Positions 27,118 through 57,082 of a stretch of 64,000 bases of DNA are shown one piece after another. The position numbers and the translations under genes are program-made. Within the stretch, counting starts at the first letter, position 1; every line of letters starts with the position of its first letter. Source of the DNA: Kribbella sp. CA-293567 (GTDB taxonomy: Bacteria > Actinomycetota > Actinomycetes > Propionibacteriales > Kribbellaceae); assembly GCF_027627575.1 (NCBI RefSeq), contig NZ_CP114065.1:4836001-4900000 (forward strand), read 5' to 3'. A model generated the notes under the pieces. The model had not been told where the DNA came from and did not search any database. It was given only the letters and a program-made list of their open reading frames with translations.

Positions 27118-28308
27118 TCAGTGCGCGACGCGGGCGGTGCTGTACCAGGTGGACAGGATGTCCGGCAGGCGATCCGGGGCCCAGCGGTCGACCGGATCGA
27201 TACGGCCTTTGAGCGAGCCCAGGCCCTTGGCCAGTTCGCCGACGACGTCGCCCTGCCAGGCAACGACCGCGCCGTCCTCGGGACCGACGATGACGGAAGG
27301 GCCGCCGCGGTCCAGGCAGACGACCGGGCAGCCACTGGCCAGGGCTTCGGCCACCGCCCAGCCGGCCGCCTCGCGCATCGCGGGGGCGAGCAGGGCGTCG
27401 GCCCGCAGCAGCGAGCTGAGGACTTCTTCGCGCGGCAGCTGGCCGACGAACTCGACCCGGTCGCGGACGCCGAGCTGCTCAGCGAGACGCTCGGCGCGAC
27501 GCCAGTCGGGGCCGTCGCCGATGACGCGGAGCTCCCAGTTCGCGGCCTCGGGGCGGGCCAGGGCGCTGATCGCCATCAGCAGCCCCTTCCACGGGATCAG
27601 CCGGCCGACGAACAGTGCCGTCCGGACGCCCGGGGCGCCGTACGGCTCCCGCGGTCCGGAGGCGGTGGCGAACCGGCTGATCGCGACGTTCGGCTGGACG
27701 ACCACCTCCCGCGCGTGCGGGCCGAAGTGCTCGGCGACATCCTTGTTCTGGGCAACGACCAGGTCGGCGTTCAGCGCGTGCTTGCGCCCGACCAGCCGGC
27801 GGCACAGGCCGGTGTAGCCGCGGCGTACGAGTTCGTTGAGCAGGCCCTTGGAGCCCAGCCAGTGCGCCATCGACAACGGCACCGCGGTCGAACCGCCGAC
27901 CGGACCCCAGATCACCTTGGCCGTCGACAGCTGGACCACCCCGGCGGGCATCCAGTCGACCGCGAAGGTCAGGTGGTGGATCACCGCGAAGGAGTGCTCG
28001 GCGTGCAGCCGCTCGGCGGTCCGCCCGGCCAGCCGCTGCCACAGCGGGTAGTACCAGTAGACGTCGGCGTGCCGGCGACGCAGCTTGAGCAGCCACTTCG
28101 GCAGCTCCAGCGGTACGACGGTCAGCGACGGGATCGGCCGGACGGCCAGTTCCTCGGCGATCTCGTGCGCGAACTTGCCGCGGGTGAGCAGCCAGACGTC
28201 GTGATCGCGCGCGGCCGCCTTCGCCCAGGCCCAGCCCGCGCCCGGTTCGGACCCGCCCTGCGGCCGGCAGGCGTAGGCACTCAGCAGGATCTTCGGCCGG
28301 GTCGACAT
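27118..28308 (-). CDS. GT4-family glycosyltransferase
   Basis: Retaining glycosyltransferase with GT-B fold, 396 residues. The N-terminal segment SAYACRPQGGSEPGAGWAWA and the C-terminal donor-binding motifs FVGRLIPWKGL and EAAGWAVAEALASGCPVVCL support GT4. It is the last of four genes overlapping by 1-4 bp (starting at 29898). The neighbours make it likely to decorate a polymer or lipid carrying a phosphoalditol. Donor and acceptor are unknown. Confidence 0.9.
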   Translation of the reverse strand: MSTRPKILLSAYACRPQGGSEPGAGWAWAKAAARDHDVWLLTRGKFAHEIAEELAVRPIPSLTVVPLELPKWLLKLRRRHADVYWYYPLWQRLAGRTAERLHAEHSFAVIHHLTFAVDWMPAGVVQLSTAKVIWGPVGGSTAVPLSMAHWLGSKGLLNELVRRGYTGLCRRLVGRKHALNADLVVAQNKDVAEHFGPHAREVVVQPNVAISRFATASGPREPYGAPGVRTALFVGRLIPWKGLLMAISALARPEAANWELRVIGDGPDWRRAERLAEQLGVRDRVEFVGQLPREEVLSSLLRADALLAPAMREAAGWAVAEALASGCPVVCLDRGGPSVIVGPEDGAVVAWQGDVVGELAKGLGSLKGRIDPVDRWAPDRLPDILSTWYSTARVAH

Positions 28309-28724
28309 CAGAGCGTTCCCTCCAGGAGCCTGCGGAGATCCGTGCTCGAGGTGGACGCCGTGTAGGGGAAGTAGTGCACCTCGGCACCCACCTCGCCGAG
28401 CAGCTTCTCCAGCCGGGTCCCCTTCTCGGTCCCCTTCCAGTCGTCACCCTTGAAGAGCACGTCGTAGCGCAACTGCTTCCACATCTCGAACTTGTCGCTG
28501 GACCAGTCGGCGACCACCTCGTCGACCAGGCCGATCGCCCGGACGACCTCCATCCGCTCCTCGTGCGGCACGACCGGCGGCCGGCCCTTGATCCGGCTGA
28601 CCACGTCGTCCTCGACCACACCGGCGATCAGGTAGTCGCAGTGCTCACTGGCTCGCCGCAGGATGTTCAGGTGCCCGATGTGGAACATGTCGTAGACCCC
28701 GGGGGCATAGCCGACCACGCCCAT
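28308..28724 (-). CDS. Cytidylyltransferase-like nucleotidyltransferase (TagD/GCT type), first copy
   Basis: Nucleotidyltransferase of 138 residues with the HxGH motif (GVYDMFHIGHLNIL) and the C-terminal TSSTDLR segment, similar in place to the RTxGIST motif of glycerol-3-phosphate cytidylyltransferases. It probably activates a phosphoalcohol as its CDP derivative. The ATG at 28724 overlaps the stop of the CDP-alcohol phosphotransferase gene by one base, and its own stop overlaps the start of the GT4 gene. A second, diverged copy is two genes upstream. Confidence 0.85.
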   Translation of the reverse strand: MGVVGYAPGVYDMFHIGHLNILRRASEHCDYLIAGVVEDDVVSRIKGRPPVVPHEERMEVVRAIGLVDEVVADWSSDKFEMWKQLRYDVLFKGDDWKGTEKGTRLEKLLGEVGAEVHYFPYTASTSSTDLRRLLEGTL

Positions 28725-29473
28725 CAGCTCTGCGCCCCGGTCGGGCGCGGAGCCGGCTGCAGCGCCGCCATCTCCCGGTACCACTTGGCGATCGCGGCCA
28801 GCAGGAAGACCAGGTTGGCCGCCAGCAGCGCGCCGTACAGGACGGTGAAGACGGTCGGCCGGCCGAACGCGAGGAAGACCAGGCACAGTACGCCGTAGTC
28901 GGTCGGTGCTATCAGCAACGACTTCAGCACCGAGTCGCCGCGCACGTTCGCCGTGCTGGCGCCGTGCCGGCGGCGCAACTGGTCGATCAGGATCAGCCCG
29001 AAGAACATCACCGCGGACACGCACAGGTAGGCGAGCGGCACCAGCAGGACCAACTCGTTGCTAAAGGCATCGAACCGGTAGAGCGAGATCAGTACGGCGC
29101 TGTGCAGCAGGGCGATCTTGACGCAGTCGATCATGTGGTCGAGCCACTCGCCCAGCGGCGAGCCGCCGCCGCGCAACCGGGCCAGCTGCCCGTCGGCGGA
29201 GTCGAACGCGTAGCCGAGCACCAGCAGCGCCGTGACCGCCAGCGCGAGCGGCAGGCTCGGCTCGACGGTGGCGATCAGGACGATGCCGACCAGCGAGCAG
29301 AAGCCGCTGGTCAGGCTGATCTGGTTCGGCGTCCGGCCGGCCAGGAAGGCACCTGCGGCCAGATACCGGCCGATGCGCCGGTTGACGAACCGCGAGTACG
29401 CCGGAGTGCCTGCCGAAGGCTTCTGCGCGCGCGACAGCTCGGCGACCACGTCGCCGATGGAGCGCCCGCTCAT
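28724..29473 (-). CDS. CDP-alcohol phosphotransferase family membrane protein
   Basis: Membrane enzyme of 249 residues that transfers a phosphoalcohol from a CDP-alcohol to an acceptor. The catalytic signature DG-x2-AR-x8-G-x3-D-x3-D is present (ADGQLARLRGGGSP then GEWLDHMID), with about six hydrophobic helices. In this operon it lies between two cytidylyltransferase-like genes, which suggests that it uses their CDP-activated product, possibly for a novel phospholipid headgroup or glycopolymer. The alcohol is unknown. Confidence 0.87.
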   Translation of the reverse strand: MSGRSIGDVVAELSRAQKPSAGTPAYSRFVNRRIGRYLAAGAFLAGRTPNQISLTSGFCSLVGIVLIATVEPSLPLALAVTALLVLGYAFDSADGQLARLRGGGSPLGEWLDHMIDCVKIALLHSAVLISLYRFDAFSNELVLLVPLAYLCVSAVMFFGLILIDQLRRRHGASTANVRGDSVLKSLLIAPTDYGVLCLVFLAFGRPTVFTVLYGALLAANLVFLLAAIAKWYREMAALQPAPRPTGAQS

Positions 29474-29898
29474 GCGACCGAGCTGCGCGACTGCCGCTGG
29501 TCGATGGCGGCACGCAGGATCTGGCTACGGGAACCGCGGCGGGACACCAGGACGCTGATCGACTCGGCCGGAACGTCGCCGAACTCGTCCGGACCCAGAA
29601 CGCCGTCGGTGCCGTCGGCGGCGAAGACGGTGGTGACACCGAGCTGACCCATCAGCCACCGGGCCTCGTCACCGTCCACCACGACCACCTCGTCGACACA
29701 GCGCAGCTGCTCGATGATCTGTGCCCGCTCGACGATCGGCACGAACGGCCGGGCGCCCCAGGCGTCGACGGCCCAGTCGTCGGTCAGTACGCCGACCACC
29801 AGGTGGTCACACTGCTCCTTGGCCCGCTCCAGCACGTCGAGATGACCGACGTGGAACAGGTCGAAGACCCCGCTCAGATAGCCGATGCGTTGCGGCAC
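29470..29898 (-). CDS. Cytidylyltransferase-like nucleotidyltransferase, second copy
   Basis: Nucleotidyltransferase of 142 residues with HxGH in GVFDLFHVGHLDVLE and a C-terminal SRRGSRSQILR segment in place of TSSTDLR. The GTG at 29898 has a GGGGGAG site at a good distance and was preferred over upstream codons. It is the first gene of the overlapping group. The differing C-terminal motif suggests a different substrate from the copy at 28308-28724. Confidence 0.83.
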   Translation of the reverse strand: MPQRIGYLSGVFDLFHVGHLDVLERAKEQCDHLVVGVLTDDWAVDAWGARPFVPIVERAQIIEQLRCVDEVVVVDGDEARWLMGQLGVTTVFAADGTDGVLGPDEFGDVPAESISVLVSRRGSRSQILRAAIDQRQSRSSVA

Positions 29899-30058
29899 CT
29901 TGTGCTCCCCCACTGAGCCCTTCCGGACCCTGCCCCGTCGCCCCCCGGGCGAGTTGAACAACGAACTCCTGGTGAACATCCCGACAACCGGGTCCCACCA
30001 GTGAGCGACGTGACCCCCCACGCCCACGCTGACCTTACACCGCGTAATCGCCACTCGC

Positions 30059-31279
30059 CTAGCTACTCGCTCCATCGCGTGGCTGGCCGCGCGCGCCGTT
30101 CCGGTCGGCCGCGTGCCGGGCGATCGCATCGGTGTAGATCCTCTCCGTGGCCGCCAGATCGCGCTCCGGAGTGAAGCGGTCGAGATACACCTGGCGTGCT
30201 CGTTGCCCGAAGGCTATCGAAGTCGCCGGCTCGACCAGCACTCCCAGGGCCTTTCGGAGTGCCTCGGTGTCGCCCGGGGAGACCAGCGCGCCGGTCTCCC
30301 CGTCGTCCACCAGCTCCTCCAGCGCTCCGATCCTGGACGCCACCACCGGTACTCCGTGCGCGAACGCCTCGATCACCACCAGACCGAACGTCTCGTACGA
30401 CCGGGCCGGTACGACGAGCGCGGAGGCGGACCGCAGCACCTCCATGCACTCCATCCACGGCAGCGCGCCGAGCACCCTGACCGAGGGATCGCGGCGCGCT
30501 CGCTCGTCCGCCTCCGCCCTCAGCGGGCCGTCGCCGACCACCACCAGCTGCCCGAGCGACGCGTCCCAGGCGCTGAGCAGATCAGCGAAGCCCTTCTCCT
30601 CGGTCAGCCGCCCGAGAAAGACGACGGCCTCCCCCGCGCCTTCGCGGACAGCGCCCGAGTGGGCGACCGCATGCGGCTTCACGACGATCCGGTCCGGGTC
30701 GAAGCCGCCCGCGACGTACCGGGAGCGGACGAACTCCGAGGGCGCGATCAAGGTGGTGACGTAGCGCTGCCAGGTGTTCAGTGTCCTGTGCACGGTGATG
30801 CCGGCCACCAGCGGCAGGCTCTGCACCTTCGAATCGCGATAGCAGCCGTGGACCGCGCCGCGCCACGGGATCTTGCCGATACAGGACTCGCACGGACCAC
30901 CGTCGCGCTGGAGCACACCGTTGGCGCACATCAGCCGGAAATTGTGGAGCGTGGCCACCACCGGAAGGTTCTGGCGGGCCGCGGCGCGCAGTACCGACGG
31001 ACTGAAGAGCGGGAACGTGTTGTGCACATGCACGATGTCCGGACGCGCCGACTGCAATCGGAATGTTAAATCGCGCTCATCGGTGAATGACCATACGGAG
31101 CGAAACGGTAACAGCGCGCGATCTTTTCGGCTCATTTGCGCAATGTCGTCGCTGTGCTGTGCGTAAAGCTCAACAACATGTCCTGATGTACGCAAAAAAT
31201 CAGTTGTTTGATCGACCACCGTGTTCTCGCCACTGGGTTGACCCGAACGGTAACGGTTGTGCAACATAGCGACCCGCAT
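30059..31279 (-). CDS. GT4-family glycosyltransferase
   Basis: GT-B glycosyltransferase of 406 residues, beginning MRVAMLHNRYRSGQPSGENT. Donor-side motifs are VVFLGRLTEEKGFADLL and RSYETFGLVVIEAFAHGVPVV. A cysteine-containing segment (GGPCESCIGKIPW) resembles one seen in some actinobacterial and cyanobacterial GT4 enzymes. The first 250 bases of the gene are visibly richer in A+T than the neighbours and carry a TTA leucine codon (ERDLTFR, near residue 70). Probably part of the polysaccharide locus; a 160-base gap separates it from the CDP-alcohol operon. Confidence 0.9.
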   Translation of the reverse strand: MRVAMLHNRYRSGQPSGENTVVDQTTDFLRTSGHVVELYAQHSDDIAQMSRKDRALLPFRSVWSFTDERDLTFRLQSARPDIVHVHNTFPLFSPSVLRAAARQNLPVVATLHNFRLMCANGVLQRDGGPCESCIGKIPWRGAVHGCYRDSKVQSLPLVAGITVHRTLNTWQRYVTTLIAPSEFVRSRYVAGGFDPDRIVVKPHAVAHSGAVREGAGEAVVFLGRLTEEKGFADLLSAWDASLGQLVVVGDGPLRAEADERARRDPSVRVLGALPWMECMEVLRSASALVVPARSYETFGLVVIEAFAHGVPVVASRIGALEELVDDGETGALVSPGDTEALRKALGVLVEPATSIAFGQRARQVYLDRFTPERDLAATERIYTDAIARHAADRNGARGQPRDGASS

Positions 31280-31305: not shown

Positions 31306-31373
31306 GACAACAGGTATTTGACAGGCCGCACCTGGGGATGCACGACCGCGCGCCGAGACACCCGGAGGGTGCT

Positions 31374-33113
31374 TTGAGCAGGATTAAGTCGACAAGGGTG
31401 CTGTTCGTCGCCCTTATCGCCGTGGCGCTGGCAACCGTTACAGTCGCCTACCCCGTCATCTCTCATCAAAAGAACGCGGCATCGGCCGAGAAGTCACGCG
31501 ACACCGCCCAGTTCGGCCCAGCGGGACCAGCGGTCCTTCCCTCGAAACACCCGACCGCGAAACCGGCACAGGCCCCTGGCACCGTCTCGAAGAAGCCGCC
31601 GACGGTGGCTCCGTCGAAGACCGCCGCGCCGACCAAGAAGCCGACCACCAGCAAGCCGACCGAAACCGAGCCGGCAAAGACCGCGCCGCCGGCCCCACCG
31701 GCTCCGGCCGAGCCGGTCGTCGGCGAGACCGCCGCCGGTCCTGGCGTCGCCGGGCCGTGCAGCGGCACCGTGATCAAGCCGGGCCAGAACGCCCAGGCCG
31801 TGGTGAACTCCCAGCCGGCCGGTGCGACCGTGTGCTTCGCCTCGGGCGTGCACCGGATCAGCCAGACGATCCGGCCGAAGGCGAACATGACGATCGCCAG
31901 CTCGTCCCGGGCGGTGCTGACCGGCTCCGTGCCGCTCACCGGCTGGGCCAAGTCGGGGACCCGCTGGGTCACTCGCGGCGCGCTGCCGGCGGCGTACGGG
32001 AAGAGCGGGCAGTGCGAGGACAACAAGGCGAACATCTGCCATCTGCGGGAGCAGGTCTTCCTCGGCGGCACCCACCTGACCCGGGTCGCCTCGCTGGCCG
32101 CGGTCAAGGCCGGCACCTTCTACGCCGACTACGCGGCCAACGCGATCTACCTCGGCAGCAACCCGGCCGGCCAAGCGGCCGAGATGTCGAAGACGGCGAC
32201 CGCCATCGAGTCGAACCAGCCCGGCGTGACCGTGCGCGGCCTGACCATCGAGCACTTCGCCAGCCCGGCCCAGGCCGGCGCGCTGGTCTCCGGCCCCGGC
32301 TGGACCGTGAAGGCGAACGAGGTCCGCTGGAACAAGTCGGTCGGCCTGATGCTGGTGAAGGCGAACAACGGCCGGGTCGATCGCAACCTGGTGCACCACA
32401 ACGGCCAGCTCGGTCTGGGGCAGTACAGCTCGCTGAAGGCGAACGTGACCCGCAACGTGATCACCCACAACAACACCGACGGGTTCTGGATCGCCGACTG
32501 GGAGTCCGGCGGGATGAAGTCGACCCGCTCCTCGGGCACCGTCAGCGGCAACCTGATCCGCTCGAACAAGGGCGTCGGGATGTGGGCCGACGTCGCCGAC
32601 GACGGCCGGGTGATCAGCTCGAACAAGATCATCGGCAACGCGGCCGACGGGATCCGCTACGAGATCAGCCGCAACGGCGTGATCGAGAACAACACGATCA
32701 CCGGTAACGGCTTCGGTACCGGCCGCGGCTCCGGTACGTCGCTGTGGGACGGCGGCGGGATCAACGTGAACACCTCGGTGAACGTGACGATCCGCAACAA
32801 CACCGTCTCCGGCAACGTCAACGGCGTCTCGATCCAGTCCCGGACCCGCGGCGACGGCCCGTGGGGCCGCTACCTGCTCCGCAACGTGCACGTCACCGGC
32901 AACACGATCGGGATGACGGGCGGCACCCAGGCGACCGGCATGGTGCAGAACTCCGGCGCCGAGGTACCGGCGGGCCAGCTGACCTTCAGCGGCAACCGCT
33001 ACCTGCTGGACAAGCTGGCCGCGCAGCGGTTCGCCAAGTTCGGCACCAAGCTGACCGCCACCGGCTGGCGCAGCGCGGGTCTCGACACCGCTGGGACGTT
33101 CCATACGAGCTGA
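31374..33113 (+). CDS. Exported right-handed beta-helix protein, paralogue 1
   Basis: Exported protein of 579 residues with a single N-terminal hydrophobic segment (VLFVALIAVALATVTVAYP), then a Lys/Thr/Pro-rich linker to about residue 120, then a parallel beta-helix domain built of short NxITGN-like repeats. Diagnostic shared segments are NNTDGFWIADWESGG and SLWDGGGINVNTSVNVT. The TTG at 31374 has GGAGGG six bases upstream and fits better than the ATG at 31338, which would put polar residues before the signal anchor. Such folds occur in polysaccharide lyases, epimerases and hydrolases; no catalytic residue can be assigned. Two paralogues lie at 33414 and 42400. Confidence 0.85.
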   Translation: MSRIKSTRVLFVALIAVALATVTVAYPVISHQKNAASAEKSRDTAQFGPAGPAVLPSKHPTAKPAQAPGTVSKKPPTVAPSKTAAPTKKPTTSKPTETEPAKTAPPAPPAPAEPVVGETAAGPGVAGPCSGTVIKPGQNAQAVVNSQPAGATVCFASGVHRISQTIRPKANMTIASSSRAVLTGSVPLTGWAKSGTRWVTRGALPAAYGKSGQCEDNKANICHLREQVFLGGTHLTRVASLAAVKAGTFYADYAANAIYLGSNPAGQAAEMSKTATAIESNQPGVTVRGLTIEHFASPAQAGALVSGPGWTVKANEVRWNKSVGLMLVKANNGRVDRNLVHHNGQLGLGQYSSLKANVTRNVITHNNTDGFWIADWESGGMKSTRSSGTVSGNLIRSNKGVGMWADVADDGRVISSNKIIGNAADGIRYEISRNGVIENNTITGNGFGTGRGSGTSLWDGGGINVNTSVNVTIRNNTVSGNVNGVSIQSRTRGDGPWGRYLLRNVHVTGNTIGMTGGTQATGMVQNSGAEVPAGQLTFSGNRYLLDKLAAQRFAKFGTKLTATGWRSAGLDTAGTFHTS

Positions 33114-33300: not shown

Positions 33301-33321
33301 CCACGCAACCATTTTGCGTGG
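33301..33321. promoter_or_regulatory. 8-bp inverted repeat upstream of second beta-helix gene
   Basis: CCACGCAA (33301-33308) and TTGCGTGG (33314-33321) form a perfect inverted repeat with a 5-base spacer, about 95 bases before the start of the second beta-helix gene. It sits where an operator would be expected. The remaining bases of the 300-base gap (33114-33413) show only a terminator-like hairpin and a leader shared with the first gene. Confidence 0.4.
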
Positions 33322-33413
33322 TGCCACGACTACGGCAAGTAGTAGTCTTCTGGGGAAGGCCGCACCAGGGGGGTGCAAAGAAAGACAAGTACCCAACCCC
33401 CGGAGGGTCGTCA

Positions 33414-35141
33414 GTGAAGAAGTCAGTGACCATCATCTGCGTCGCGGCAGCCGGTGCGGTCGCCATTACGGGGATCGTGGCCGGAACGCGGACCAACATG
33501 GCCTCGGCGTTCGGCGAGGAGAAGACCGGCATCCTGCCGGGAGACCAGCCACGCAAGCCGTGGCCCCGACATACTCCGCGACCGACCGTCAGCGTGCCCA
33601 CCACGCCCGCCCCGACGGCTACCGCGAGCCCCACGAAGCCGACCGCTTCCCCGACCGTCAAGCCGACGGTCACCCCCACGCCCACGCCTACGCCCACCCC
33701 GACACCACCGCCGACCAGTACGCCGCAGCCGACGACGCCGGCTCCCGGCACGTTCCCGGCCGGCCCCTCGCTGGCACCGGAGTGCAAGGGCACCACGATC
33801 AGCACCAGCCAGAACGCCGCCGACGTGATCGACAAGGCCGCGGTCGGTACGACGTTCTGCTTCACCGCCGGTGTGCACCGGATCAACCGCACGCTGAAGC
33901 CGAAGGCGAACACGACGCTGGGCAGCGACGCGGGCGCGGTGCTGACCGGCTCGGTCCCGCTGACCGCCTGGACCGCCGACAACGGCGACTGGGTGACGCG
34001 GGGCGTGCTGCCGGCGGCGTACGGGATGACCGGGCAGTGCGAGGACAACGCGGCCAACATCTGCCACCTGCGTGAGCAGGTGTTCCTGAACGGCAAGCAC
34101 CTGTTGCGGGTCAAGGCCCGCGATCAGGTCGCGCCGGGCACCTTCTACGCCGACTACGCGGGCAACGCCGTCTACCTGGGCGACAACCCGGCGGGCCGGT
34201 CGGTGGAGATGTCCAAGACGGCGACCGCGATCCAGTCGAACGCGACCAACGTCGCGGTGGTCGGCCTGACGGTCGAGCACTTCGCCAGCGTGCCGCAGGC
34301 CGGCGCGGTGGTGCTCGGCAGCGGCTGGCGGGTGTTCGCCAACGACATCCGCTGGAACCACGCGGTCGGCGCGATGCTGGTCAACGCCGACGGCGCGACC
34401 CTGGACCGCAACCTGATCCAGTACAACGGCCAGCTCGGCGTCGGTCAGTACAGCACCACCAACGGCAAGATCGTCGGCAACCAGGTCAGCAACAACAACA
34501 CCGACGGGTTCTGGATCGCCGACTGGGAGTCCGGTGGCATCAAGACCACCTGGTCCACCAACGGCTCGGTCTCGGGCAACCTGATCAAGCAGAACCTCGG
34601 CGTCGGTCTGTGGAGCGACGCCTACGACGACGGCCGGGTGTTCAGCGACAACCAGATCGTCGGCAACGCCGCCGACGGCATCCGCTACGAGATCGGCCGC
34701 AACGGCGTGATCGAGAACAACACGATCACCGGCAACGGCCTCGGGACCGGGCGTGGCTCGGGCCGGTCGCTGTGGGACGGCGGCGGGATCAACGTCAACA
34801 CCTCGGTGAACGTGACGGTCCGCAACAACACGCTGTCCGGCAACGTCAACGGCATCTCGATCCAGTCGCGGACCCGTGGCAACGGACCGTGGGGCCTGAA
34901 CCTGCTGCGCGACGTGACCGTCACCGGCAACAAGGTGACCATGCGCGGCGGCACCACCTCGACCGGCATGGTGCAGAACTCGGGCGCCGCGATCCCGACC
35001 GGCGAGGTCGTCCTGAAGGGCAACACCTACGTGCTCGACAGCCTGAGCGCGGACCGGTTCCAGAAGTTCGGCCAGTGGTTCAGCGCCTCGGAGTGGAAGG
35101 CCGCCGGTCTCGACACCGACAGCCGCTTCACCACCGGCTGA
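33414..35141 (+). CDS. Exported right-handed beta-helix protein, paralogue 2
   Basis: Exported protein of 575 residues, closely similar to the gene at 31374 through the whole beta-helix domain (NNTDGFWIADWESGG, SLWDGGGINVNTSVNVTV, SIQSRTRG). A signal-anchor (about 4-25) is followed by a Thr/Pro linker rich in TP dipeptides (about residues 60-120), encoded by a short DNA tandem repeat near 33670-33705. Start GTG at 33414 after CGGAGGGT. No lipobox or sortase motif is visible, so it is either secreted or anchored by the N-terminal helix. Function unknown; carbohydrate binding or cleavage is inferred from the fold and the neighbouring exopolysaccharide and uronate genes. Confidence 0.85.
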   Translation: MKKSVTIICVAAAGAVAITGIVAGTRTNMASAFGEEKTGILPGDQPRKPWPRHTPRPTVSVPTTPAPTATASPTKPTASPTVKPTVTPTPTPTPTPTPPPTSTPQPTTPAPGTFPAGPSLAPECKGTTISTSQNAADVIDKAAVGTTFCFTAGVHRINRTLKPKANTTLGSDAGAVLTGSVPLTAWTADNGDWVTRGVLPAAYGMTGQCEDNAANICHLREQVFLNGKHLLRVKARDQVAPGTFYADYAGNAVYLGDNPAGRSVEMSKTATAIQSNATNVAVVGLTVEHFASVPQAGAVVLGSGWRVFANDIRWNHAVGAMLVNADGATLDRNLIQYNGQLGVGQYSTTNGKIVGNQVSNNNTDGFWIADWESGGIKTTWSTNGSVSGNLIKQNLGVGLWSDAYDDGRVFSDNQIVGNAADGIRYEIGRNGVIENNTITGNGLGTGRGSGRSLWDGGGINVNTSVNVTVRNNTLSGNVNGISIQSRTRGNGPWGLNLLRDVTVTGNKVTMRGGTTSTGMVQNSGAAIPTGEVVLKGNTYVLDSLSADRFQKFGQWFSASEWKAAGLDTDSRFTTG

Positions 35142-42399: not shown

Positions 42400-43941
42400 A
42401 TGGGACGCGGGTTCACGTCGGCGGGGGCTCTTCTGCTCGCCGGACTTTTGCTGGCCGGGTGCAGCGATGATCCGGCGGCGCCGGTGGCTGGTGAGTCGAA
42501 GACAGCCGAGCCGACGGTCGCCGTGCCGACCGAGGTCCCGGCGGCGGCGAAGACGAAGCTGGGCGCCACCGGACCGGCGACCGCGCCCAAATGCGTGGGC
42601 GTCGCGATCCCGGTCGGTGCCGAACCGCAGCAGGTGATCGATGCCAACCCGACGGCCAAGATCTTCTGCTTCGAGAAGGGGCTGCACCGGATCGCTCGGG
42701 CCATCCGGCCGACCGAAGGCTCGACCCTGGCGAGCAGCGAGGGCGCGGTACTGACCGGGTCGGTGCAGCTCCGCGGCTGGCAGGCCGAAGGTGGCCGGTG
42801 GGTGGTGCGCGGCGTACTGCCGGCGGCGTACAAGCTGAAGGGGAAGTGCGAGGACGAGAAGACCAACCCGTGCCAGCGCGGCGAGCAGGTCTTCGTCGAC
42901 GGCGCGCACCTCACCCGGGTGATGAGCTTGGAGGCACTGAAGCCGGGAACGTTCTTCGGCGACTACGCGGCCAACGCGGTCCACCTCGCGGACGATCCCG
43001 CCGGGAAGGCCGTCGAGATGTCGAGGACGCGGGCCGCGATCGAGGTGTCGGCGCAGGACGTGACCGTCAGCGGGCTGACGATCGAGCACTTCGCCAGCCT
43101 GCCACAGGGCGGCGCGCTCGAGGCGGGCACCGGGTGGAAGGTGGTCGCCAACGAGGTCCGCTGGAACCACGGAGTCGGCGTGATGGTGATCCAGGGCGAC
43201 CGGGCCACGGTCAGCGGCAACACCATCGCCGACAACGGGCAGCTCGGGATCGGGCAGTACGACTCGGCCGACGGCAAGCTCACCGGCAACCTGGTGACGC
43301 GCAACAACACCGACGGCTTCTGGATCGCCGACTGGGAGTCCGGTGGGATCAAGTCCACCCGGTCGTCCGGTGAGGTGTCGGGCAACGACATCGTCGCCAA
43401 CCGCGGCATCGGGATGTGGAGCGACATCGCGGAGTACGACCGGGTGATCGCCGGCAACCGGATCCGGGACAACGCGGCGGACGGGATCCGGTACGAGATC
43501 AGCTACCAGGCCACCATCCGGGACAACGTTGTCGAGGGCAACGGATTTGGGACCGGGCGGGGATCGGGGCCGAGCCTGTGGGACGGCGGCGGGATCAACG
43601 TGAACACCTCGGCCGGGGTGACGGTGGCCGGCAACCTGATCAAGGGCAACCGCAACGGGATCGCGATCCAGTCCCGGACCCGCGGCGACGGGCCGCGCGG
43701 GCCGTACGTGCTGGCCGACGTGCTGATCGAGGCCAACCAGGTGGTGATGGACGAGCGGACCGCCAGCACCGGAGTGGTCGAGAACAAGGAGTCCCCCGCC
43801 AAGGACGGCGCGATCCGGTTCAGCCGGAACAGCTACCGGATCGGGGACCGGCAGGCGCAGCGGTTCGCCTACCGGGGCGCGACGATGACGTGGGAGCAGT
43901 GGCAGGCAGCCGGCTTCGACCAGGACAGCGTCACCGGCTAG
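42400..43941 (+). CDS. Right-handed beta-helix lipoprotein, paralogue 3
   Basis: Lipoprotein of 513 residues, anchored by the lipobox LLAGC (Cys about 23) after a short signal peptide. The mature part carries the same parallel beta-helix domain as the genes at 31374 and 33414, with NNTDGFWIADWESGG, SLWDGGGINVNTSAGVTVAG and SIQSRTRGDG-like segments. The linker is short (about 40 residues) compared with the paralogues. ATG at 42400 after GGGGA; a GTG at 42388 is in frame. It is probably on the outer face of the membrane. Function unknown. Confidence 0.86.
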   Translation: MGRGFTSAGALLLAGLLLAGCSDDPAAPVAGESKTAEPTVAVPTEVPAAAKTKLGATGPATAPKCVGVAIPVGAEPQQVIDANPTAKIFCFEKGLHRIARAIRPTEGSTLASSEGAVLTGSVQLRGWQAEGGRWVVRGVLPAAYKLKGKCEDEKTNPCQRGEQVFVDGAHLTRVMSLEALKPGTFFGDYAANAVHLADDPAGKAVEMSRTRAAIEVSAQDVTVSGLTIEHFASLPQGGALEAGTGWKVVANEVRWNHGVGVMVIQGDRATVSGNTIADNGQLGIGQYDSADGKLTGNLVTRNNTDGFWIADWESGGIKSTRSSGEVSGNDIVANRGIGMWSDIAEYDRVIAGNRIRDNAADGIRYEISYQATIRDNVVEGNGFGTGRGSGPSLWDGGGINVNTSAGVTVAGNLIKGNRNGIAIQSRTRGDGPRGPYVLADVLIEANQVVMDERTASTGVVENKESPAKDGAIRFSRNSYRIGDRQAQRFAYRGATMTWEQWQAAGFDQDSVTG

Positions 43942-45239
43942 ATGTAGCGCTGCTTGACCGGTTTCAAGGGTGGTGGATTCGCCAGCGCTCTCAGGCGATC
44001 GGCGTCACAGACCGCGGCGGCGACCAGGAGGTGCAGGGTCATCGAGCTGAGGTCCGAGAGGCCGCTCTCGTTGAGCGAGGCAACCGTCACGTAGCCGAGC
44101 AGAAGGGCGCCGCTGGCCTTGACGTAGGGAGTCGGGGCCCGGAGGACCGAGGCCCAGGCGAGGATGAAGGCGACGCCGACGATCGCGACCGCCAGCAGGC
44201 CGGTCTCCCAGTAGAGGCTCAGCCAGCTGTTGTCGATCGCCATCACGTCGATGTCGCCCTCGCCCCGGCGGAGCAGCACCCGCTTGTTGCCCAGACCATG
44301 GCCGATGATCGCCGTCTGCAGGGAGACATCCTCGTCCAGCACGTACTGCCAGCTCGTGGTGCGACCGCTCAGGGAGCTGATCTGCTTGGTCCCCTGTCCC
44401 CGCAGCAGCCACGTCTGCAGCGACGGGACCACCAGGAACGCCAGCCCCAGCAGGGCCGGCACCGAGATCGACGCTATTCGGCTGAACCAGCTCTTCCGGG
44501 TCAGGAAGAGGGCCAGGACCAGACCGACGGCGACCGCGGCGGCCGCCGTCCGGGTCCGGCTCGCCGCGACCAGGACGACGCCGATGGTGATCATCACCCC
44601 GGCCGGGATGAACGAGATCTTGCGGGCGAAGAAGGCGATGATCGCCAGCCCGAGCAGGATCGCGCCGACCTCGCCGACACGCGGTGGCAGCATCGGGATG
44701 AGCACGCCCTGCAAGCGGTAGCCGGTGCCGAACGAGCTGAGCGGCCGCCAGGCCACCGAGGGCCGCCAGACCACGCTGAGCACGACCGTGAGCGCCAGCA
44801 GCAGATGCGCGAACAGATGCGCCCGGATCAGCCGCTCCGGCACCCGGATCAGCGGCCGCCACAGCATGAACAGCAGGATCAGGCCGATCATGAACCGCGC
44901 GAGCCGCAGCAGCGGGCCGCCCGGATCCGCGAGCAGGAAGGCCGTGGCCGTGGCGAAGAGCGCGTAGGCGACGTACAGGGTGGTGGTGGGGCTCGCGCGG
45001 GTCCGGAAACCCGGCTTGGTGGCGGCCAGGCAGATCAGGAAGATCGCGCCGAGCAGGACGCCCTTCATCAGGCTGTTGGTCGAGCCCGTCGACCCCTGCG
45101 GCGCGGCGGCCCGTGAGGACCAGGGCTGCACGCCGAGCACCAGCAGGCACCACATGGCGAGCCAGAGCCAGGTCGCCTTGCCTGTCTCCGCGTCCTCGGT
45201 GGTCCCCGGCACCGGTGGTGCCGTCAGCGTCATCGTCAC
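43938..45239 (-). CDS. O-antigen ligase / Wzy-type polymerase family membrane protein
   Basis: Polytopic membrane protein of 433 residues with about ten helices and a large external loop before GHGLGNKRVLL and DNSWLSLYWETGLLAV, the O-antigen ligase/Wzy_C pattern. It is predicted to polymerise lipid-linked repeat units outside the membrane in a Wzx/Wzy pathway. Start is the GTG at 45239 or the in-frame ATG at 45233. Its 3' end overlaps that of the convergent beta-helix gene by 4 bp. It lies next to the chain-length protein gene. Confidence 0.85.
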   Translation of the reverse strand: MTMTLTAPPVPGTTEDAETGKATWLWLAMWCLLVLGVQPWSSRAAAPQGSTGSTNSLMKGVLLGAIFLICLAATKPGFRTRASPTTTLYVAYALFATATAFLLADPGGPLLRLARFMIGLILLFMLWRPLIRVPERLIRAHLFAHLLLALTVVLSVVWRPSVAWRPLSSFGTGYRLQGVLIPMLPPRVGEVGAILLGLAIIAFFARKISFIPAGVMITIGVVLVAASRTRTAAAAVAVGLVLALFLTRKSWFSRIASISVPALLGLAFLVVPSLQTWLLRGQGTKQISSLSGRTTSWQYVLDEDVSLQTAIIGHGLGNKRVLLRRGEGDIDVMAIDNSWLSLYWETGLLAVAIVGVAFILAWASVLRAPTPYVKASGALLLGYVTVASLNESGLSDLSSMTLHLLVAAAVCDADRLRALANPPPLKPVKQRYI

Positions 45240-45264
45240 AGCCCCGTCAGCATGGTCGACCCTG

Positions 45265-46911
45265 TCAGCGCAACGGCGGTGCGGCGGTCTCGGCCGGAGT
45301 GAAGTTGAGCGGGATGCCCAGCGAGTCGTCGTGCTTCGAGCAGCCGATCAGTACGACGCCGAGCACCGGCGCGCCCGCGAACTTCAGCGCGGCCGTGAGC
45401 CGGGTCAGGTCCGTCTCCTTGTCCTGACCGACCTGCACGACCAGCACCGACGCGTCGACCGCCGCGGCCAGTGGCGTGATCCCGTGCCGGCCGACCGAGG
45501 CCGGGCCGTGGATGACCACCGAGTACCCCGGGGGCAGGTCGGCCACGATCCCCGGCACCAGCGACGGGCCGATCGCGAGCGCGGACTCGTCGTGGCTCAG
45601 GCCGGGCGGCAGCACGTAGAGATCGGCGACCGTGCCAGGGCGGAACAACTTACGGGCCCGCACCGCGCGGGTGGCGGCCGGCTCGTTGACCAGATCGGTG
45701 AGGCCCTCGTGATCGGTCAGGTGCGACAACACCGGCGTACGCCGCAGGTCGGCCAGGACCAGCAGCGTCTCGCGACCGTCACGGGCGCTCGCCTCTGCCA
45801 TCGCCAGCGCGATACCGGCCGAGTTCGGCGTGGGCGAGGCCGAGACGACCAGCAGTGCACCGGCGCCGCTCGAGCCGATCCCCTTCGGGTTCAGCTCACG
45901 GCGTGCCAGCGCGCCACTCGCCTCGGTGCCCAGCGCGGTGATCTCGGACGGTCCCAGCTGCGGGGAAGCGCGAAGCCAGAAGCGCAACCGGAAGCCGAGC
46001 CGGTAGCGCCGGTGGCCGATCGCGGCCGTGATGACCGGGGCGCTCGCTGCCCGCGCGGCCTGGTCGCGAGTCAGGATGAACGGGCTCAGATGGGTACTGA
46101 CCAGGGCCAGGCCGAAGCCGAGCACCAGCCCGAGGATCGCGCCGACGGTGATGTCGCGCATCACCAGCGGCGACGACGAGGCGGTGTCCTTGGTAGCGGG
46201 CGTGACGAGCGTGCTGCTCGCGCCGACGCCGGTCAGCGCCTTGTTCATGGCGGATGCCTCGTCGGCGGCCTGCCGGGCCTCCGACGCGAGCCCGACCCGC
46301 TGGTCGCGCAGCGAGCTGGCTTCCTGGGTGTCGCCGCGCCCCTGGGCGTCGGCGATCTGCTCGAGCAGGTTCTTCGACTGGAGATTGGCGCTCTTGGCGC
46401 GGTCGGTGGCCTGGCTGGCCAGCGTGACCAGCAGCGTCTTGGCCTCGGTACTGCGCTGGGCCAGGTAGATCTGGGCGATCGCGTTGGCCCGGCGGACGGC
46501 CTCGTCGGCGGTCGGGCCGTCGATGGTGATCAGGTAGGCGTTGTCGGTGACCGCCTTCACCCGGGTCACTCCGGCCAGCGCCTGGACCGAGTCGTCCGTG
46601 GTCGGCATCTGCAGGAACTTGGCGACCTCGCGCAGGATCTGCGGGCTCGCCATCACCCGGGCCTGGGTCTCGGCCGGCAGGTCGAGGCCGAGTGGGCCGC
46701 TCTTGTCGCCACCGGTCGGCAGTTTGCCGACCAGGGCCGGCGGGACCGCCGGCCCGATCACGACCTGGCTGGACGCGGTCCAGCGCTCGGTCTGCGACAG
46801 TGAGAAGAACGCCGAGCTGCCGATGCCGAGCAGCACGCAGCCGATGATCAGCCATTTGTGCCGCAGGAGTGACTGTGCGGTGTCCCGCCAGACCACAGTG
46901 CCCGGTTCCAT
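45265..46911 (-). CDS. Wzz-like chain-length protein with a degenerate kinase-type domain
   Basis: Polysaccharide co-polymerase of 548 residues. Two membrane segments (about 14-37 and 240-262) flank an extracytoplasmic Wzz region with coiled coil. The cytoplasmic part (about 340-520) aligns in layout with bacterial tyrosine kinases, but the P-loop is SASPTPNSAGIALAMA, with no GK[ST] lysine, and the second Walker segment reads LLVLADLRRTP. No C-terminal tyrosine cluster is present. So it is probably not an active kinase and may only control chain length. The ATG at 46911 follows GGGGG. Confidence 0.85.
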   Translation of the reverse strand: MEPGTVVWRDTAQSLLRHKWLIIGCVLLGIGSSAFFSLSQTERWTASSQVVIGPAVPPALVGKLPTGGDKSGPLGLDLPAETQARVMASPQILREVAKFLQMPTTDDSVQALAGVTRVKAVTDNAYLITIDGPTADEAVRRANAIAQIYLAQRSTEAKTLLVTLASQATDRAKSANLQSKNLLEQIADAQGRGDTQEASSLRDQRVGLASEARQAADEASAMNKALTGVGASSTLVTPATKDTASSSPLVMRDITVGAILGLVLGFGLALVSTHLSPFILTRDQAARAASAPVITAAIGHRRYRLGFRLRFWLRASPQLGPSEITALGTEASGALARRELNPKGIGSSGAGALLVVSASPTPNSAGIALAMAEASARDGRETLLVLADLRRTPVLSHLTDHEGLTDLVNEPAATRAVRARKLFRPGTVADLYVLPPGLSHDESALAIGPSLVPGIVADLPPGYSVVIHGPASVGRHGITPLAAAVDASVLVVQVGQDKETDLTRLTAALKFAGAPVLGVVLIGCSKHDDSLGIPLNFTPAETAAPPLR

Positions 46912-47090
46912 CCGGTGGTCCCCCAATTCCTCACTCAGCGCACTCCGACAGACAGGACTGCGCCGCTCCCCCGCCCGGCCGACCGGGCTTCCCGAGCCCT
47001 CACGGTGACCGGATCCCAACACTGATCACCACTGGCGACCGGATCCTTGCCGGGCCCAGGATATAGGCATCGGGTGGGCACCGAAACCGG

Positions 47091-47116
47091 ACCGAGGTCA
47101 CGGTCGGTACCTCGGT
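47091..47116. promoter_or_regulatory. Inverted repeat upstream of beta-propeller array
   Basis: ACCGAGGT (47091-47098) and ACCTCGGT (47109-47116) form a perfect 8-bp inverted repeat with a 10-base spacer, in the 420-base gap between the chain-length gene and the first beta-propeller gene. A regulator could use it to control either divergent unit. The rest of the gap has a weak promoter-like TACTCT near 47238 and no gene. Confidence 0.35.
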
Positions 47117-47331
47117 TCGGCCGGATCCGCTCCGGCCGGAAGCGGCAATCGTCCGTAACGTTCACGCAGAGTGACGATTGTGGGCGACTCGCCGGGTCTG
47201 ACCGTTTGCAGACTGGTCAAAGCTCACTTTCTGTGGCCTACTCTGTTCTCGGGGGAATTCGGGGTTATCACGTAACGGGATCACTGGTACGGCGTCGGGG
47301 TAGACGCCGGTCCGAGGGGGGACACCGCAGG

Positions 47332-49539
47332 ATGAAGAAGAGATGGCTTTTCGCGCGCCTGGGCACGGCCGGCGCGCTGGTGGCAGCGGCCGGAGTGATG
47401 GTGCTGGCACCGCCGGCCCAGAGCATCGAGGCCTCGCTGTCGGCGCAGAACAGCCCGGTCTGGCAGACCAACGCCAGTGTCCAGGGCATCACCGTGGCCG
47501 CTGGGAAGGCCTACGTCGGTGGACGGTTCACCAGCGTCCGCCCGCCGGGCTCGCCGCTGGGCACCAACGAGGTCGGCCAGGCCTACCTGGCCGCCTTCGA
47601 CGCGACCACCGGCGACCTGGTCGCCTCGTTCAACCCGGTCCTCGACGGCCAGGTGTACGCCGTGGCCGCCTCGGCCGACGGCTCGCGGGTCTTCATCGGC
47701 GGTGACTTCACCAACGTCAACGGCGTGACCCGCAACCGGGTCGCCGCCTTCGACACCGCCACCGGCGCGCTGGTGCCGAACTGGAAGCCCTCGGTCTCCT
47801 ACCGGGTCAAGTCGATCGCGGTCTCCGGCGACACCGTGTACTTCGGTGGCTCCTTCGGCCTGGTGAACGGCATCGACCGGCTCCGGCTCGCCGCCGTGAC
47901 CGCCGACCTCGGCACCTTGTTGCCCTGGGCCCCTTCCACCAACGGCGACGTGTACGCCGTGGACGTGGCCGACGACGGCTCCAAGGCCTACGCCGGTGGC
48001 CAGTTCAGCACCGTCAACGGCACCAACCAGAACACCGTCACCAGCCTCGACCCGGTGACCGGCGCGGTGCTGCCGTTCGCCGGCGCCTCCGCGGTCCCGC
48101 CGCCGAACGGCTCCTGCACCACCCGGGTCAAGTCGATCGACGCCTCGGGTGACACCGTCTACTTCGGCAACGGTGGTGACGGCGGTGGCTGCTTCGACGG
48201 CACCTGGGCCGTCGACATCGCGACCAACACGCTGAAGTGGAAGAACCAGTGCCTGGGCGCCACCGAGGCGGTCAAGATGGTGAACGGCTGGCTCTACAAG
48301 GCCTCCCACGCGCACGACTGCGCCTACAACGGCGCCGGCGCCTTCCCGCAGGGCTTCGGCTACCGCTTCCTGCTCGCCGAGAACCCGGCCGACGGCAAGA
48401 TCGGCCCGTGGTTCCCGAACACCAACGCCGGTCCGCCCACCGAGGTCGGCCCGCTGGCGCTCGCGACCGGCGGCTCGGACCTGTGGGTCGGTGGCGACTT
48501 CACCACCACCAACGGTGCCGGCCAGCAGGGTCTGACCCGCTTCACCAACGCCGGACCGGGTGCCGCTCCGGCCAAGCCGGCCAAGCTGCTGCCGTCCTCG
48601 GTCAAGGCCGGCGAGGTCCAGATCCACTTCCCCACCGTCGTGGACAACGACGACAGCACGCTGACCTACCGGCTGCTGAAGGGGTTCAGCAACACCACCA
48701 TCGCGACCTGGACCGCCACCTCGACGCCGTGGGACAAGCCGTGGCTGCACTACACCGACACCGACGTGACACCGGGTGAGGTGACCAACTACCGGGTCGA
48801 GGTGACCGACGGTACGACGACGATCCGGGGCAACTACTCCGATCCGCTCACGGTGGCGAGCGCCACCAGTACGGCGTACGACGAGATCATCAAGTCCGAC
48901 GGCCCGCAGGCGTACTGGCGGCTCGGTGAGGCGTCGGGCACGACCACCTCGACCGACTCCTCCGGCCAGAGCAACAACGGCACCTACAGCGGCATGACGC
49001 TCGGCAGCTCCGGCAAGGTGAGCGGCAACACGGCGGCCACGACCAGCTCGAGCAACGGCCGGATGGCCGGCGAGAAGGCCTACAGCATGCCGCAGCAGTT
49101 CACCGTGGAGGCCTGGTTCAAGCAGAGCTTCCTGCGCGGTGGCCGGATCGTCGGCTTCGGCAACTCCAAGACCGGCAACAGCAGCTCCACCGACCGGATG
49201 CTGTACCTGCGCTCCAACGGCCAGGTCACCTTCGGCGTCAACGACGGCAGTCAGCGCACCATCAACAGCACGTCGAACAAGAACAACAGCGCCTGGCACC
49301 ACGCGGTCGGCACCTACGACAACGGCGTCATGAAGCTGTACGTCGACGGGGTGCTGGCCGGCAGCCAGACGGTCGGTCAGGCCTCCCTCTACTACGGCTG
49401 GTGGCGAGTCGGCTACGACACCACCAACTCGTGGTCCGGTGGCGGCGCGACGCAGACCGGCATGGTCATCGACGAGGCGGCGGTCTACCCGTACGCACTC
49501 ACCGCCGGTCAGGTCCTGAACCACTACAACGCGGGCTGA
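47332..49539 (+). CDS. Secreted beta-propeller/LamG protein, paralogue 1
   Basis: Secreted protein of 735 residues: signal peptide (about 1-30), a repeat domain of WxVGGxF-like blades (QTNASVQGITVA, YVGGRFTSVRPPG, VFIGGDFTNVNG, VYFGGSFGLVNG) resembling delta-60/DUF5122 beta-propellers, then a fibronectin-like domain (about 415-515) and a C-terminal LamG-like lectin domain (about 520-735; YWRLGEASGTTT, FTVEAWFKQ, LYVDGVLAGS). A cysteine-containing motif, GNGGDGGGCFDGTW then NQCLGATE then SHAHDC, is conserved in all four paralogues. The best ATG is at 47332. Likely exposed on or released from the cell; ligand unknown. Confidence 0.85.
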   Translation: MKKRWLFARLGTAGALVAAAGVMVLAPPAQSIEASLSAQNSPVWQTNASVQGITVAAGKAYVGGRFTSVRPPGSPLGTNEVGQAYLAAFDATTGDLVASFNPVLDGQVYAVAASADGSRVFIGGDFTNVNGVTRNRVAAFDTATGALVPNWKPSVSYRVKSIAVSGDTVYFGGSFGLVNGIDRLRLAAVTADLGTLLPWAPSTNGDVYAVDVADDGSKAYAGGQFSTVNGTNQNTVTSLDPVTGAVLPFAGASAVPPPNGSCTTRVKSIDASGDTVYFGNGGDGGGCFDGTWAVDIATNTLKWKNQCLGATEAVKMVNGWLYKASHAHDCAYNGAGAFPQGFGYRFLLAENPADGKIGPWFPNTNAGPPTEVGPLALATGGSDLWVGGDFTTTNGAGQQGLTRFTNAGPGAAPAKPAKLLPSSVKAGEVQIHFPTVVDNDDSTLTYRLLKGFSNTTIATWTATSTPWDKPWLHYTDTDVTPGEVTNYRVEVTDGTTTIRGNYSDPLTVASATSTAYDEIIKSDGPQAYWRLGEASGTTTSTDSSGQSNNGTYSGMTLGSSGKVSGNTAATTSSSNGRMAGEKAYSMPQQFTVEAWFKQSFLRGGRIVGFGNSKTGNSSSTDRMLYLRSNGQVTFGVNDGSQRTINSTSNKNNSAWHHAVGTYDNGVMKLYVDGVLAGSQTVGQASLYYGWWRVGYDTTNSWSGGGATQTGMVIDEAAVYPYALTAGQVLNHYNAG

Positions 49540-49603
49540 CCGGAGACCGGCGGACCGGTGCACGCTGAGCGGACGATCGAAGTTCCATAGCACAAACTCA
49601 TAA

Positions 49604-53467: not shown

Positions 53468-53475
53468 ATATACGG

Positions 53476-57079: not shown

Positions 57080-57082
57080 CGC

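What the first reader, a model, noticed from the sequence alone, without database searches (positions are those of the whole stretch)
27118..29898. Compact four-gene operon with two different cytidylyltransferases around a CDP-alcohol phosphotransferase
Genes overlap by 1-4 bases: nucleotidyltransferase 2, CDP-alcohol phosphotransferase, nucleotidyltransferase 1, GT4. The two nucleotidyltransferases share HxGH but differ at the C-terminal motif (TSSTDLR against RSQILR), suggesting two activated alcohols or a two-step route. This is not a standard teichoic acid set (no tagF/tarL-like polymerase was seen) and may make an undescribed phosphoalditol lipid or glycan.
Basis: partly seen in the sequence, partly recalled or inferred. 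Interest (0 to 1): 0.7.

Follow-up and report, generated by a model that had tools for sequence, protein, structure and literature searches.

The report
Phospho-alcohol capping module with dead partner
A soil actinobacterium carries a compact gene set that probably activates a small phosphorylated alcohol with CTP and attaches it to a surface polysaccharide; one of its two look-alike activating enzymes appears to have lost its catalytic residues and probably works as a partner protein.

Summary
In detail: on the minus strand, NT2 (29470-29913), a CDP-alcohol phosphotransferase (CAP, 28724-29473), NT1 (28308-28724) and a GT4 (27118-28308) overlap by 4, 1 and 1 bases, and the order holds across Kribbella. 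The "two activated alcohols" reading is not supported. NT1 keeps the cytidylyltransferase motifs in 81 of 81 sequences. NT2 has lost the Lys, KGDDW and TSST motifs; outside Kribbella it has also lost HxGH (9 of 9). It keeps the dimer-interface motif and is under purifying selection, so it is most likely a pseudo-enzyme partner. This resembles eukaryotic ethanolamine-phosphate cytidylyltransferase, where one of two repeats lacks the signature. The CAP is not PIP or cardiolipin synthase. It has the eukaryote-type motif GExxDHxxD (98 of 99) on a six-helix fold closest to AF2299. All 31 genomes with the CAP in a 296-genome class sample also encode NT1. CAP and NT1 sit in Wzx/Wzy exopolysaccharide clusters. 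In four genomes without the CAP, NT1 is instead coupled to a LicD-type protein. Best reading: NT1 makes a CDP-alcohol (perhaps CDP-glycerol), and the CAP transfers the phospho-alcohol to exopolysaccharide or its precursor. Alcohol, acceptor and NT2's role remain inferred.

The parts
27118..28308 (-). GTa: GT4-type glycosyltransferase, last gene of the operon; 1-base overlap with NT1
   Evidence: conserved position in 21 of 21 Kribbella-type loci
28308..28724 (-). NT1: intact HxGH cytidylyltransferase (138 aa), predicted to make a CDP-alcohol
   Evidence: motifs kept in 81 of 81; co-occurs with CAP 31 of 31
28724..29473 (-). CAP: six-helix CDP-alcohol phosphotransferase with motif DxxDGQxARx8GExxDHxxD
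   Evidence: model pLDDT 86; AF2299 Z 18.4
29470..29913 (-). NT2: degenerate cytidylyltransferase-like protein (147 aa), predicted non-catalytic partner
   Evidence: pN/pS 0.35; model keeps the fold
30059..31279 (-). GTb: GT4-type glycosyltransferase, 145 bp upstream of NT2, same strand, conserved with the operon
31338..33113 (+). BH1: secreted right-handed beta-helix protein, divergent from the operon, conserved neighbour
33318..35141 (+). BH2: secreted right-handed beta-helix protein, paralogue of BH1
42484..60668 (.). Wzx/Wzy-type exopolysaccharide cluster: beta-helix, Wzy-like, Wzz, four beta-propeller proteins, flippase-like, WecG/TagA GT, two sugar-nucleotide genes read by eye as GDP-mannose dehydratase and GDP-fucose synthase, initiating sugar transferase
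   Evidence: Wzz present in the same 35 of 38 Kribbella genomes as CAP

Best explanation
NT1 condenses CTP with a small phospho-alcohol (most likely glycerol-3-phosphate or a similar neutral polyol phosphate) to a CDP-alcohol. The membrane enzyme CAP uses this as donor. An Asp-rich two-metal site holds the CDP, and an invariant Glu/His pair (E109, H113) activates an acceptor hydroxyl, so the phospho-alcohol is transferred to exopolysaccharide or its lipid-linked precursor at the cytosolic membrane face, before export and polymerisation by the neighbouring Wzx/Wzy machinery. NT2 is a catalytically dead cytidylyltransferase paralogue that pairs with NT1 through the conserved dimer interface and/or docks NT1 on the CAP. 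Shown by sequence: motifs, gene order, co-occurrence, EPS neighbourhood, loss of motifs in NT2. Inferred: the alcohol, the acceptor and the NT1-NT2 partnership.
For: NT1: HxGH, K46, G93/D95/W96 and TSS[TS]xLR kept in 81 of 81; NT2: K46 kept in 0 of 32, D95 in 4 of 32, W96 in 1 of 32, while V67 is kept in 32 of 32 and D68 in 28 of 32. NT2 outside Kribbella lost HxGH in 9 of 9; 23 of 23 Kribbella NT2 keep HVGH. NT2 pN/pS median 0.35, so it is selected and not decaying. NT2 lies directly upstream of CAP in 29 of 32 loci. ECT precedent: two HxGH repeats, one ISTT motif, and a third motif at the dimer interface (PMC2784872 passages). CAP: E109 and H113 in 99 of 99; the CHPT1 paper proposes this pair as the base that activates the acceptor hydroxyl and says it is absent in most bacterial CDP-APs (PMC10182977 passages). 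Fold closest to AF2299 (4q7c, Z 18.4, rmsd 3.0, 213 aligned), which binds CDP-glycerol (PMC4634129 passages). All 31 strong CAP genomes of 296 encode NT1, against 5 of 265 others, even where unlinked (e.g. G104, G279). EPS genes near CAP in 52 of 76 loci against 0 of 20 control windows. In 4 of 4 group-g3 genomes with NT1 (at least 140 bits) but no CAP, NT1 is followed directly by a LicD-domain protein. CAP, NT1, NT2 and the window's Wzz share the same 35/3 presence pattern in 38 genus genomes.
Against: No biochemistry. NT2 in Kribbella keeps HVGH, so weak or altered nucleotide binding is not excluded. NT1 misses the NCBIfam cut-off for glycerol-3-phosphate cytidylyltransferase (61.8 against 165.4 bits). 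The six-helix architecture has been linked to soluble acceptors, which leaves open a free soluble product rather than a glycan-linked one. NT2 was recognised in only 9 non-Kribbella loci, so the module works without it elsewhere. 24 of 76 loci showed none of the chosen EPS marker families and 17 of 76 had no NT1 inside the fetched stretch; one EPS locus (G117) has NT1 without a detected CAP. LicD matches cover only about 30 residues of the profile. The loss pattern within Kribbella may be a single event.
Confidence: 0.5

Rival explanations
1. Two active cytidylyltransferases make two different CDP-alcohols that the CAP joins or uses in turn.
For: Both match PF01467; Kribbella NT2 keeps HVGH in 23 of 23 and is under purifying selection.
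Against: NT2 lost K46, the KGDDW motif and the TSST motif and, in other families, HxGH too; most CAP loci show no NT2, while NT1 is present in 31 of 31 CAP genomes.
Confidence: 0.1
2. The module makes a new phosphodiester lipid: the CAP transfers the phospho-alcohol to diacylglycerol or another lipid alcohol, as in the eukaryotic Kennedy pathway.
For: E/H pair shared with choline/ethanolamine phosphotransferases, whose acceptor is diacylglycerol.
Against: Model has six transmembrane helices, not the extra C-terminal helices of lipid-acceptor enzymes; gene context is exopolysaccharide and four genomes have a LicD-type partner instead.
Confidence: 0.2
3. The module makes a soluble phosphodiester (as di-myo-inositol phosphate synthase does) that is a solute or precursor, not a glycan decoration.
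For: Closest folds AF2299 and DIPP synthase handle non-lipid substrates; six helices.
Against: Linkage to Wzx/Wzy clusters and co-loss with Wzz; neither AF2299 nor DIPP synthase has the E/H pair in the printed alignments.
Confidence: 0.12
4. The CAP is a CDP-diacylglycerol enzyme (a PIP synthase or cardiolipin synthase variant) and the NTs are unrelated neighbours.
For: Weak matches to archaetidylinositol phosphate synthase and PIP synthase models (42.5 and 31 bits).
Against: Far under their cut-offs (180, 170); the genome has its own PIP synthase, ClsA and PgsA; the family is a separate clade (99/97); NT1 co-occurs 31 of 31.
Confidence: 0.05

Closest known systems
Ethanolamine-phosphate cytidylyltransferase (ECT, PCYT2)
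   Same: Two cytidylyltransferase units, only one with the ISTT-type motif, both with the dimer-interface motif; best PDB sequence hit of both NTs (3elb); NT2 model Z 16.4
   Different: Separate genes with the CAP gene between them; NT2 lost HxGH outside Kribbella; substrate unknown
Eukaryotic choline/ethanolamine phosphotransferases (CHPT1, CEPT1)
   Same: Extended motif DxxDGxxAR...GExxDHxxD; donor expected to be a CDP-small alcohol
   Different: Six helices without the extra C-terminal ones; fold match weaker (Z 12.2); acceptor probably not diacylglycerol
AF2299 and AfDIPP synthase of Archaeoglobus
   Same: Six-helix fold (Z 18.4 and 17.5), NR motif in the first helix, cytidylyltransferase-type partner, hydrophilic CDP-alcohol donor
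   Different: Their partner domain is fused, and of another fold by my recollection; printed alignments lack the E/H pair
TagD / Fom1 cytidylyltransferases
   Same: NT1 matches TagD (1coz, E 1.3e-10) and the Fom1 CyTase (5x3d, E 4e-13)
   Different: Below the TagD equivalog cut-off; no EDKX5NS phosphoenolpyruvate mutase found in 4 candidate loci (motif recalled)
LicC/LicD-type glycan capping
   Same: CDP-alcohol made by one protein and transferred to a surface glycan by another; NT1 orthologues are coupled to a LicD-domain protein in 4 genomes
   Different: Here the transferase is a membrane CAP, not LicD; no LicD match in the genome

Membership tests
CDP-alcohol phosphotransferase superfamily (PF01066) | Pfam gathering score and D1xxD2G1xxAR...G2xxxD3xxxD4 | tested here: met
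   37.4 bits against 22; four Asp in 99 of 99
PIP synthase | NCBIfam NF045883 cut-off | tested here: not met
   31 against 170 bits; true PIP synthase elsewhere in the genome, 243.9 bits
Cardiolipin synthase ClsA | NCBIfam NF053678 cut-off | tested here: not met
   Not listed for the CAP at E 0.001; ClsA elsewhere, 281.8 bits
Eukaryotic-type choline/ethanolamine phosphotransferase | G2ExxD3HxxD4 extension | tested here: met
   98 of 99 by pattern, E and H 99 of 99; definition from PMC10182977
Eukaryotic-type choline/ethanolamine phosphotransferase | Extra C-terminal transmembrane helices for a lipid acceptor | tested here: not met
   Model has six long helices of membrane length plus one interfacial helix; definition from PMC4634129
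Glycerol-3-phosphate cytidylyltransferase (TagD) | NCBIfam TIGR01518 cut-off | tested here: not met
   NT1 61.8, NT2 44.5 against 165.4 bits
Active HxGH cytidylyltransferase | NT1: HxGH, Lys, KGDDW, TSS[TS]xLR | tested here: met
   HxGH, K46, TSS, L, R and D95/W96 in 81 of 81; lead K of KGDDW in 80 of 81
Active HxGH cytidylyltransferase | NT2: HxGH, Lys, KGDDW, TSS[TS]xLR | tested here: not met
   K46 0 of 32, W96 1 of 32; HxGH 23 of 23 in Kribbella, 0 of 9 outside
ECT (PCYT2) | Two repeats in one polypeptide | tested here: not met
   Separate genes
ECT (PCYT2) | One unit without ISTT-type motif, both with the dimer motif | tested here: met
ECT (PCYT2) | Activity on phosphoethanolamine and dimer formation | not testable with these tools
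   needs purified proteins
Wall teichoic acid gene set | TagF-type polymerase in the cluster | tested here: not met
   The two PF04464 hits of the genome lie outside the window
Phosphonate tailoring | Phosphoenolpyruvate mutase with EDKX5NS | tested here: not met
   4 PF13714 loci in the own genome, motif in none of six frames

The most novel reading that the evidence does not exclude
A bacterial, split counterpart of the eukaryotic CDP-ethanolamine branch: an NT1-NT2 heterodimer with one dead subunit channels a CDP-alcohol to a eukaryote-type (E/H dyad) membrane phosphotransferase that caps or decorates an exopolysaccharide, a glycan-directed job not seen for this enzyme superfamily in the papers searched.
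Probability: 0.3. Interest if true: 0.72.

Novelty: new variant of a known kind. Interest (0 to 1): 0.5.

Why it matters
Class I CDP-alcohol phosphotransferases are known mainly as phospholipid or small-solute enzymes. A widespread actinobacterial family tied to exopolysaccharide clusters, carrying the Glu/His pair thought to be eukaryotic, and with a LicD-type protein in its place next to NT1 in some genomes, would extend them to glycan decoration and suggest what phosphate groups sit on these polymers. The NT2 story warns against reading two homologous activating enzymes as two substrates, and gives a simple test of pseudo-enzyme partnership in this fold.

Tried and rejected
Rejected: two-substrate reading (NT2 motif loss); NT2 as a decaying pseudogene (present in 35 of 38 genomes; pN/pS 0.35); PIP or cardiolipin synthase; phosphonate route; a protein-anchor role of the CAP via sorting signals on the beta-propeller proteins (no common C-terminal motif seen by eye in 31 proteins).

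Led nowhere: ten literature searches listed no paper on this module; only listings were seen except for passages of PMC4634129, PMC8633023, PMC2784872, PMC10156783, PMC10182977, PMC6821184, PMC6697681, PMC13118837 and PMC8587909. PMC13118837 mentions another Streptomyces CDP-alcohol gene next to tagGH/araM; I did not test whether it is this family. The NT tree did not settle whether NT2 has one origin (15 NT2 rows, 2 changes; L060 and HldE have very long branches). The promoter/terminator scan found no promoter-like site.

Dropped rows: L070 and L071 (weak CAP hits, 71 and 69 bits) and L166 (same contig as L057) from the neighbourhood count of 76; G006 and G141 (weak CAP, E 2.2e-11 and 7.8e-11) and G287 (NT1 117 bits) from the co-occurrence count; NT hits under 80 bits or far from the CAP from the NT alignment; Kribbella rows thinned in the trees (80 and 36 rows kept). 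The neighbourhood HMMs were built partly from the same loci, so their hits there lean towards the CAP set; controls were 20 windows at round positions. Fisher p 3.9e-37 ignores relatedness.
Full report
What is there. The window lies in a 7.6 Mb Kribbella-type genome (the relatives are Kribbella). On the minus strand, in order of transcription, lie a GT4 (GTb, 30059-31279), NT2 (29470-29913), a CDP-alcohol phosphotransferase (CAP, 28724-29473), NT1 (28308-28724) and a second GT4 (GTa, 27118-28308). The last four overlap by 4, 1 and 1 bases. Pfam places both NTs in PF01467 and the CAP in PF01066.

It is conserved. GTb-NT2-CAP-NT1-GTa is in this order in 21 of 21 Kribbella-type loci, one of them titled Streptomyces sp. 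SID13031. In 38 genomes of the genus, CAP, NT2 (the three exceptions have at best a weak hit of another kind), NT1 and the Wzz of the exopolysaccharide cluster about 16 kb away are present in the same 35 and absent from the same 3 (G296, G305, G324). This may be one loss event. CAP relatives are found in 33 of 296 class genomes at E 1e-10, the own genome included, 31 of them strong.

NT1 is the real enzyme, NT2 is not. I aligned 81 NT1 and 32 NT2 sequences from loci that hold the CAP. NT1 keeps HxGH, K46, G93, D95, W96 and TSS[TS]xLR in 81 of 81. NT2 has no Lys at position 46 (0 of 32), has W96 in 1 of 32 and D95 in 4 of 32, and has mostly Pro or Gln for the last Thr of TSST. HxGH is HVGH in 23 of 23 Kribbella NT2, but NVRD (3), NVAH (2), NVGH, NVGD, NVED or NIAH (1 each) in the 9 others. 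Yet NT2 keeps E56 and R57 (32 of 32) and the VDxVV segment (V67 32 of 32, D68 28 of 32). Its pN/pS is 0.35, against 0.13 for NT1 and 0.32 for the CAP (medians over 105 pairs of 15 loci), so it is constrained. The NT2 model (pLDDT 81) keeps the cytidylyltransferase fold (2b7l Z 16.5, rmsd 2.1, 113 aligned; 3elb Z 16.4, rmsd 2.1, 121 aligned), and the segment of the lost C-terminal motif is of low confidence.

The parallel. In ethanolamine-phosphate cytidylyltransferase (ECT) two tandem units both carry HxGH but only one carries the ISTT-type motif, and the VDxVI-type motif lies in the dimer interface (passages of PMC2784872). A change in the HxGH of the second unit of PCYT2 is reported to prevent dimers needed for activity (passage of PMC6821184). 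ECT is also the best PDB sequence match of both NTs. NT1 plus NT2 therefore looks like a split ECT-type pair. This is a likeness in design, not membership: the genes are separate and the substrate is unknown. NT2 lies directly upstream of the CAP in 29 of 32 loci, and in L060 it is beside the CAP while NT1 is on another contig, so docking to the CAP is also possible.

The CAP. Aligned over 99 sequences (98 different in the compared core; L057 and L166 are the same contig), the four motif Asp, E109 and H113 are present in 99 of 99, and the pattern DxxDGxx[AS]R...GExxDHxxD in 98 of 99. The CHPT1 structure paper proposes exactly this extension, says the Glu and His are conserved in eukaryotic enzymes but absent in most bacterial ones, and assigns them to activating the acceptor hydroxyl (passages of PMC10182977). 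The five other CAPs of the genome (PgsA, ClsA, PIP synthase, a phosphatidylcholine-synthase-like protein and one unassigned) lack GExxDH in the translations I read. A tree separates 31 members of the family from these five with 99/97 support, with long branches among the five. The model (pLDDT 86) has six membrane-length helices and matches AF2299 best (4q7c Z 18.4, rmsd 3.0, 213 aligned), then DIPP synthase (17.5, 2.5, 205), PIP synthases (about 15-16) and choline phosphotransferase (12.2, 3.5, 194). AF2299 was solved with CDP-glycerol, and six helices are associated with non-lipid acceptors (passages of PMC4634129 and PMC8633023). The Glu that holds the choline ammonium in CHPT1/CEPT1 has no evident counterpart near the invariant N31-R32, by my reading of the alignment. 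This favours a neutral polyol over a cationic alcohol, weakly.

What it works with. All 31 strong CAP genomes encode an NT1 orthologue (at least 140 bits), against 5 of the other 265 (Fisher 3.9e-37 ignoring relatedness). In several the two genes are far apart (for example G104, G279), so the link is functional rather than mere neighbourhood. Of the five genomes with NT1 but no CAP, four (group f2/g3) have NT1 followed at once by a protein with a LicD domain over the Pfam cut-off (25.4-28.1 against 22.6 bits, about 30 residues aligned, a DSDTD motif) and, in two of the four, a methyltransferase domain over its cut-off. The fifth (G117) has NT1 in an exopolysaccharide locus without a detected CAP. 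LicD proteins are known, from established knowledge, to transfer phospho-alcohols from CDP-alcohols to glycans; LicD-like phosphotransferases in cell-wall glycan contexts are also mentioned in PMC6697681 (passages). This swap is the best clue that the CAP does the same job.

Where it acts. In 76 non-Kribbella-genome and order-level CAP loci (L198 and L197 are from a deep Kribbella), 52 have at least one of initiating sugar transferase, flippase, Wzy-like or Wzz-like genes within the fetched stretch, against 0 of 20 control windows, and 51 have a secreted beta-propeller protein against 0 of 20. The window's own cluster (42484-60668) has the same make-up, and the beta-helix proteins beside the operon have a paralogue in it.

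Which alcohol. No gene for making a special alcohol is seen in the operon, which suits a central metabolite such as glycerol-3-phosphate. NT1 is the only intact TagD-like PF01467 protein in the genome (the others read by eye as NadD-, CoaD- and HldE-like, and one weak hit). The genome has two TagF-family proteins elsewhere, one without a cytidylyltransferase recognised in the 20 kb fetched. Human PCYT2, of the same fold, also makes CDP-glycerol (passages of PMC8587909). I put CDP-glycerol at about 0.45.

Verdict. Confidence by step: NT1 makes a CDP-alcohol 0.85; CAP uses it as donor 0.8; NT2 non-catalytic 0.8; NT2 partners NT1 or CAP 0.6; acceptor is exopolysaccharide or its precursor 0.55; alcohol is glycerol 0.45. 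Novelty: new variant of a known kind. No paper on it appeared in the ten searches of the held library, which lacks most subscription journals.

Noticed in passing
L227:2841-5088, L228:7651-9997, L229:7470-9711, L230:7892-10112: In four genomes (group f2/g3) an NT1 orthologue is followed by a LicD-domain protein (methyltransferase domain in two) and a small protein (DUF6752 in the two scanned).
   Followed up: partly
47332-55078: Four tandem secreted beta-propeller proteins (one with a LamG domain) whose family sits near the CAP in 51 of 76 loci; function unknown.
   Followed up: partly
31338-35141 and 42484-43941: Three paralogous secreted beta-helix proteins, two beside the operon and one beside the Wzy-like gene; perhaps exopolysaccharide lyases or epimerases.
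   Followed up: no
L239:7447-9669 and L240:8607-10464 (G000:C1:7288446-7290668 and 2194106-2195963): Two TagF-family proteins elsewhere in the genome; one seems fused to a GT2 domain, the other sits beside a LicC-like NTP transferase and a mannitol-dehydrogenase-like gene (names beyond PF04464 read by eye).
   Followed up: partly
L039:4248-5980: About 1.7 kb separates NT2 from the CAP in Kribbella steppae; the inserted stretch was not examined.
   Followed up: no
L198 (G313:C1:2080000-2099000): A deep-branching Kribbella has a second, divergent CAP with its own NT1 on the other strand.
   Followed up: no
L033: Record titled Streptomyces sp. SID13031 looks like Kribbella (CAP 94% identical, same gene order): probably mislabelled.
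   Followed up: no
L068:16297-17199 and relatives (family 22): A roughly 300-aa protein with no Pfam match, next to a GFO/IDH/MocA oxidoreductase in several EPS loci.
   Followed up: no
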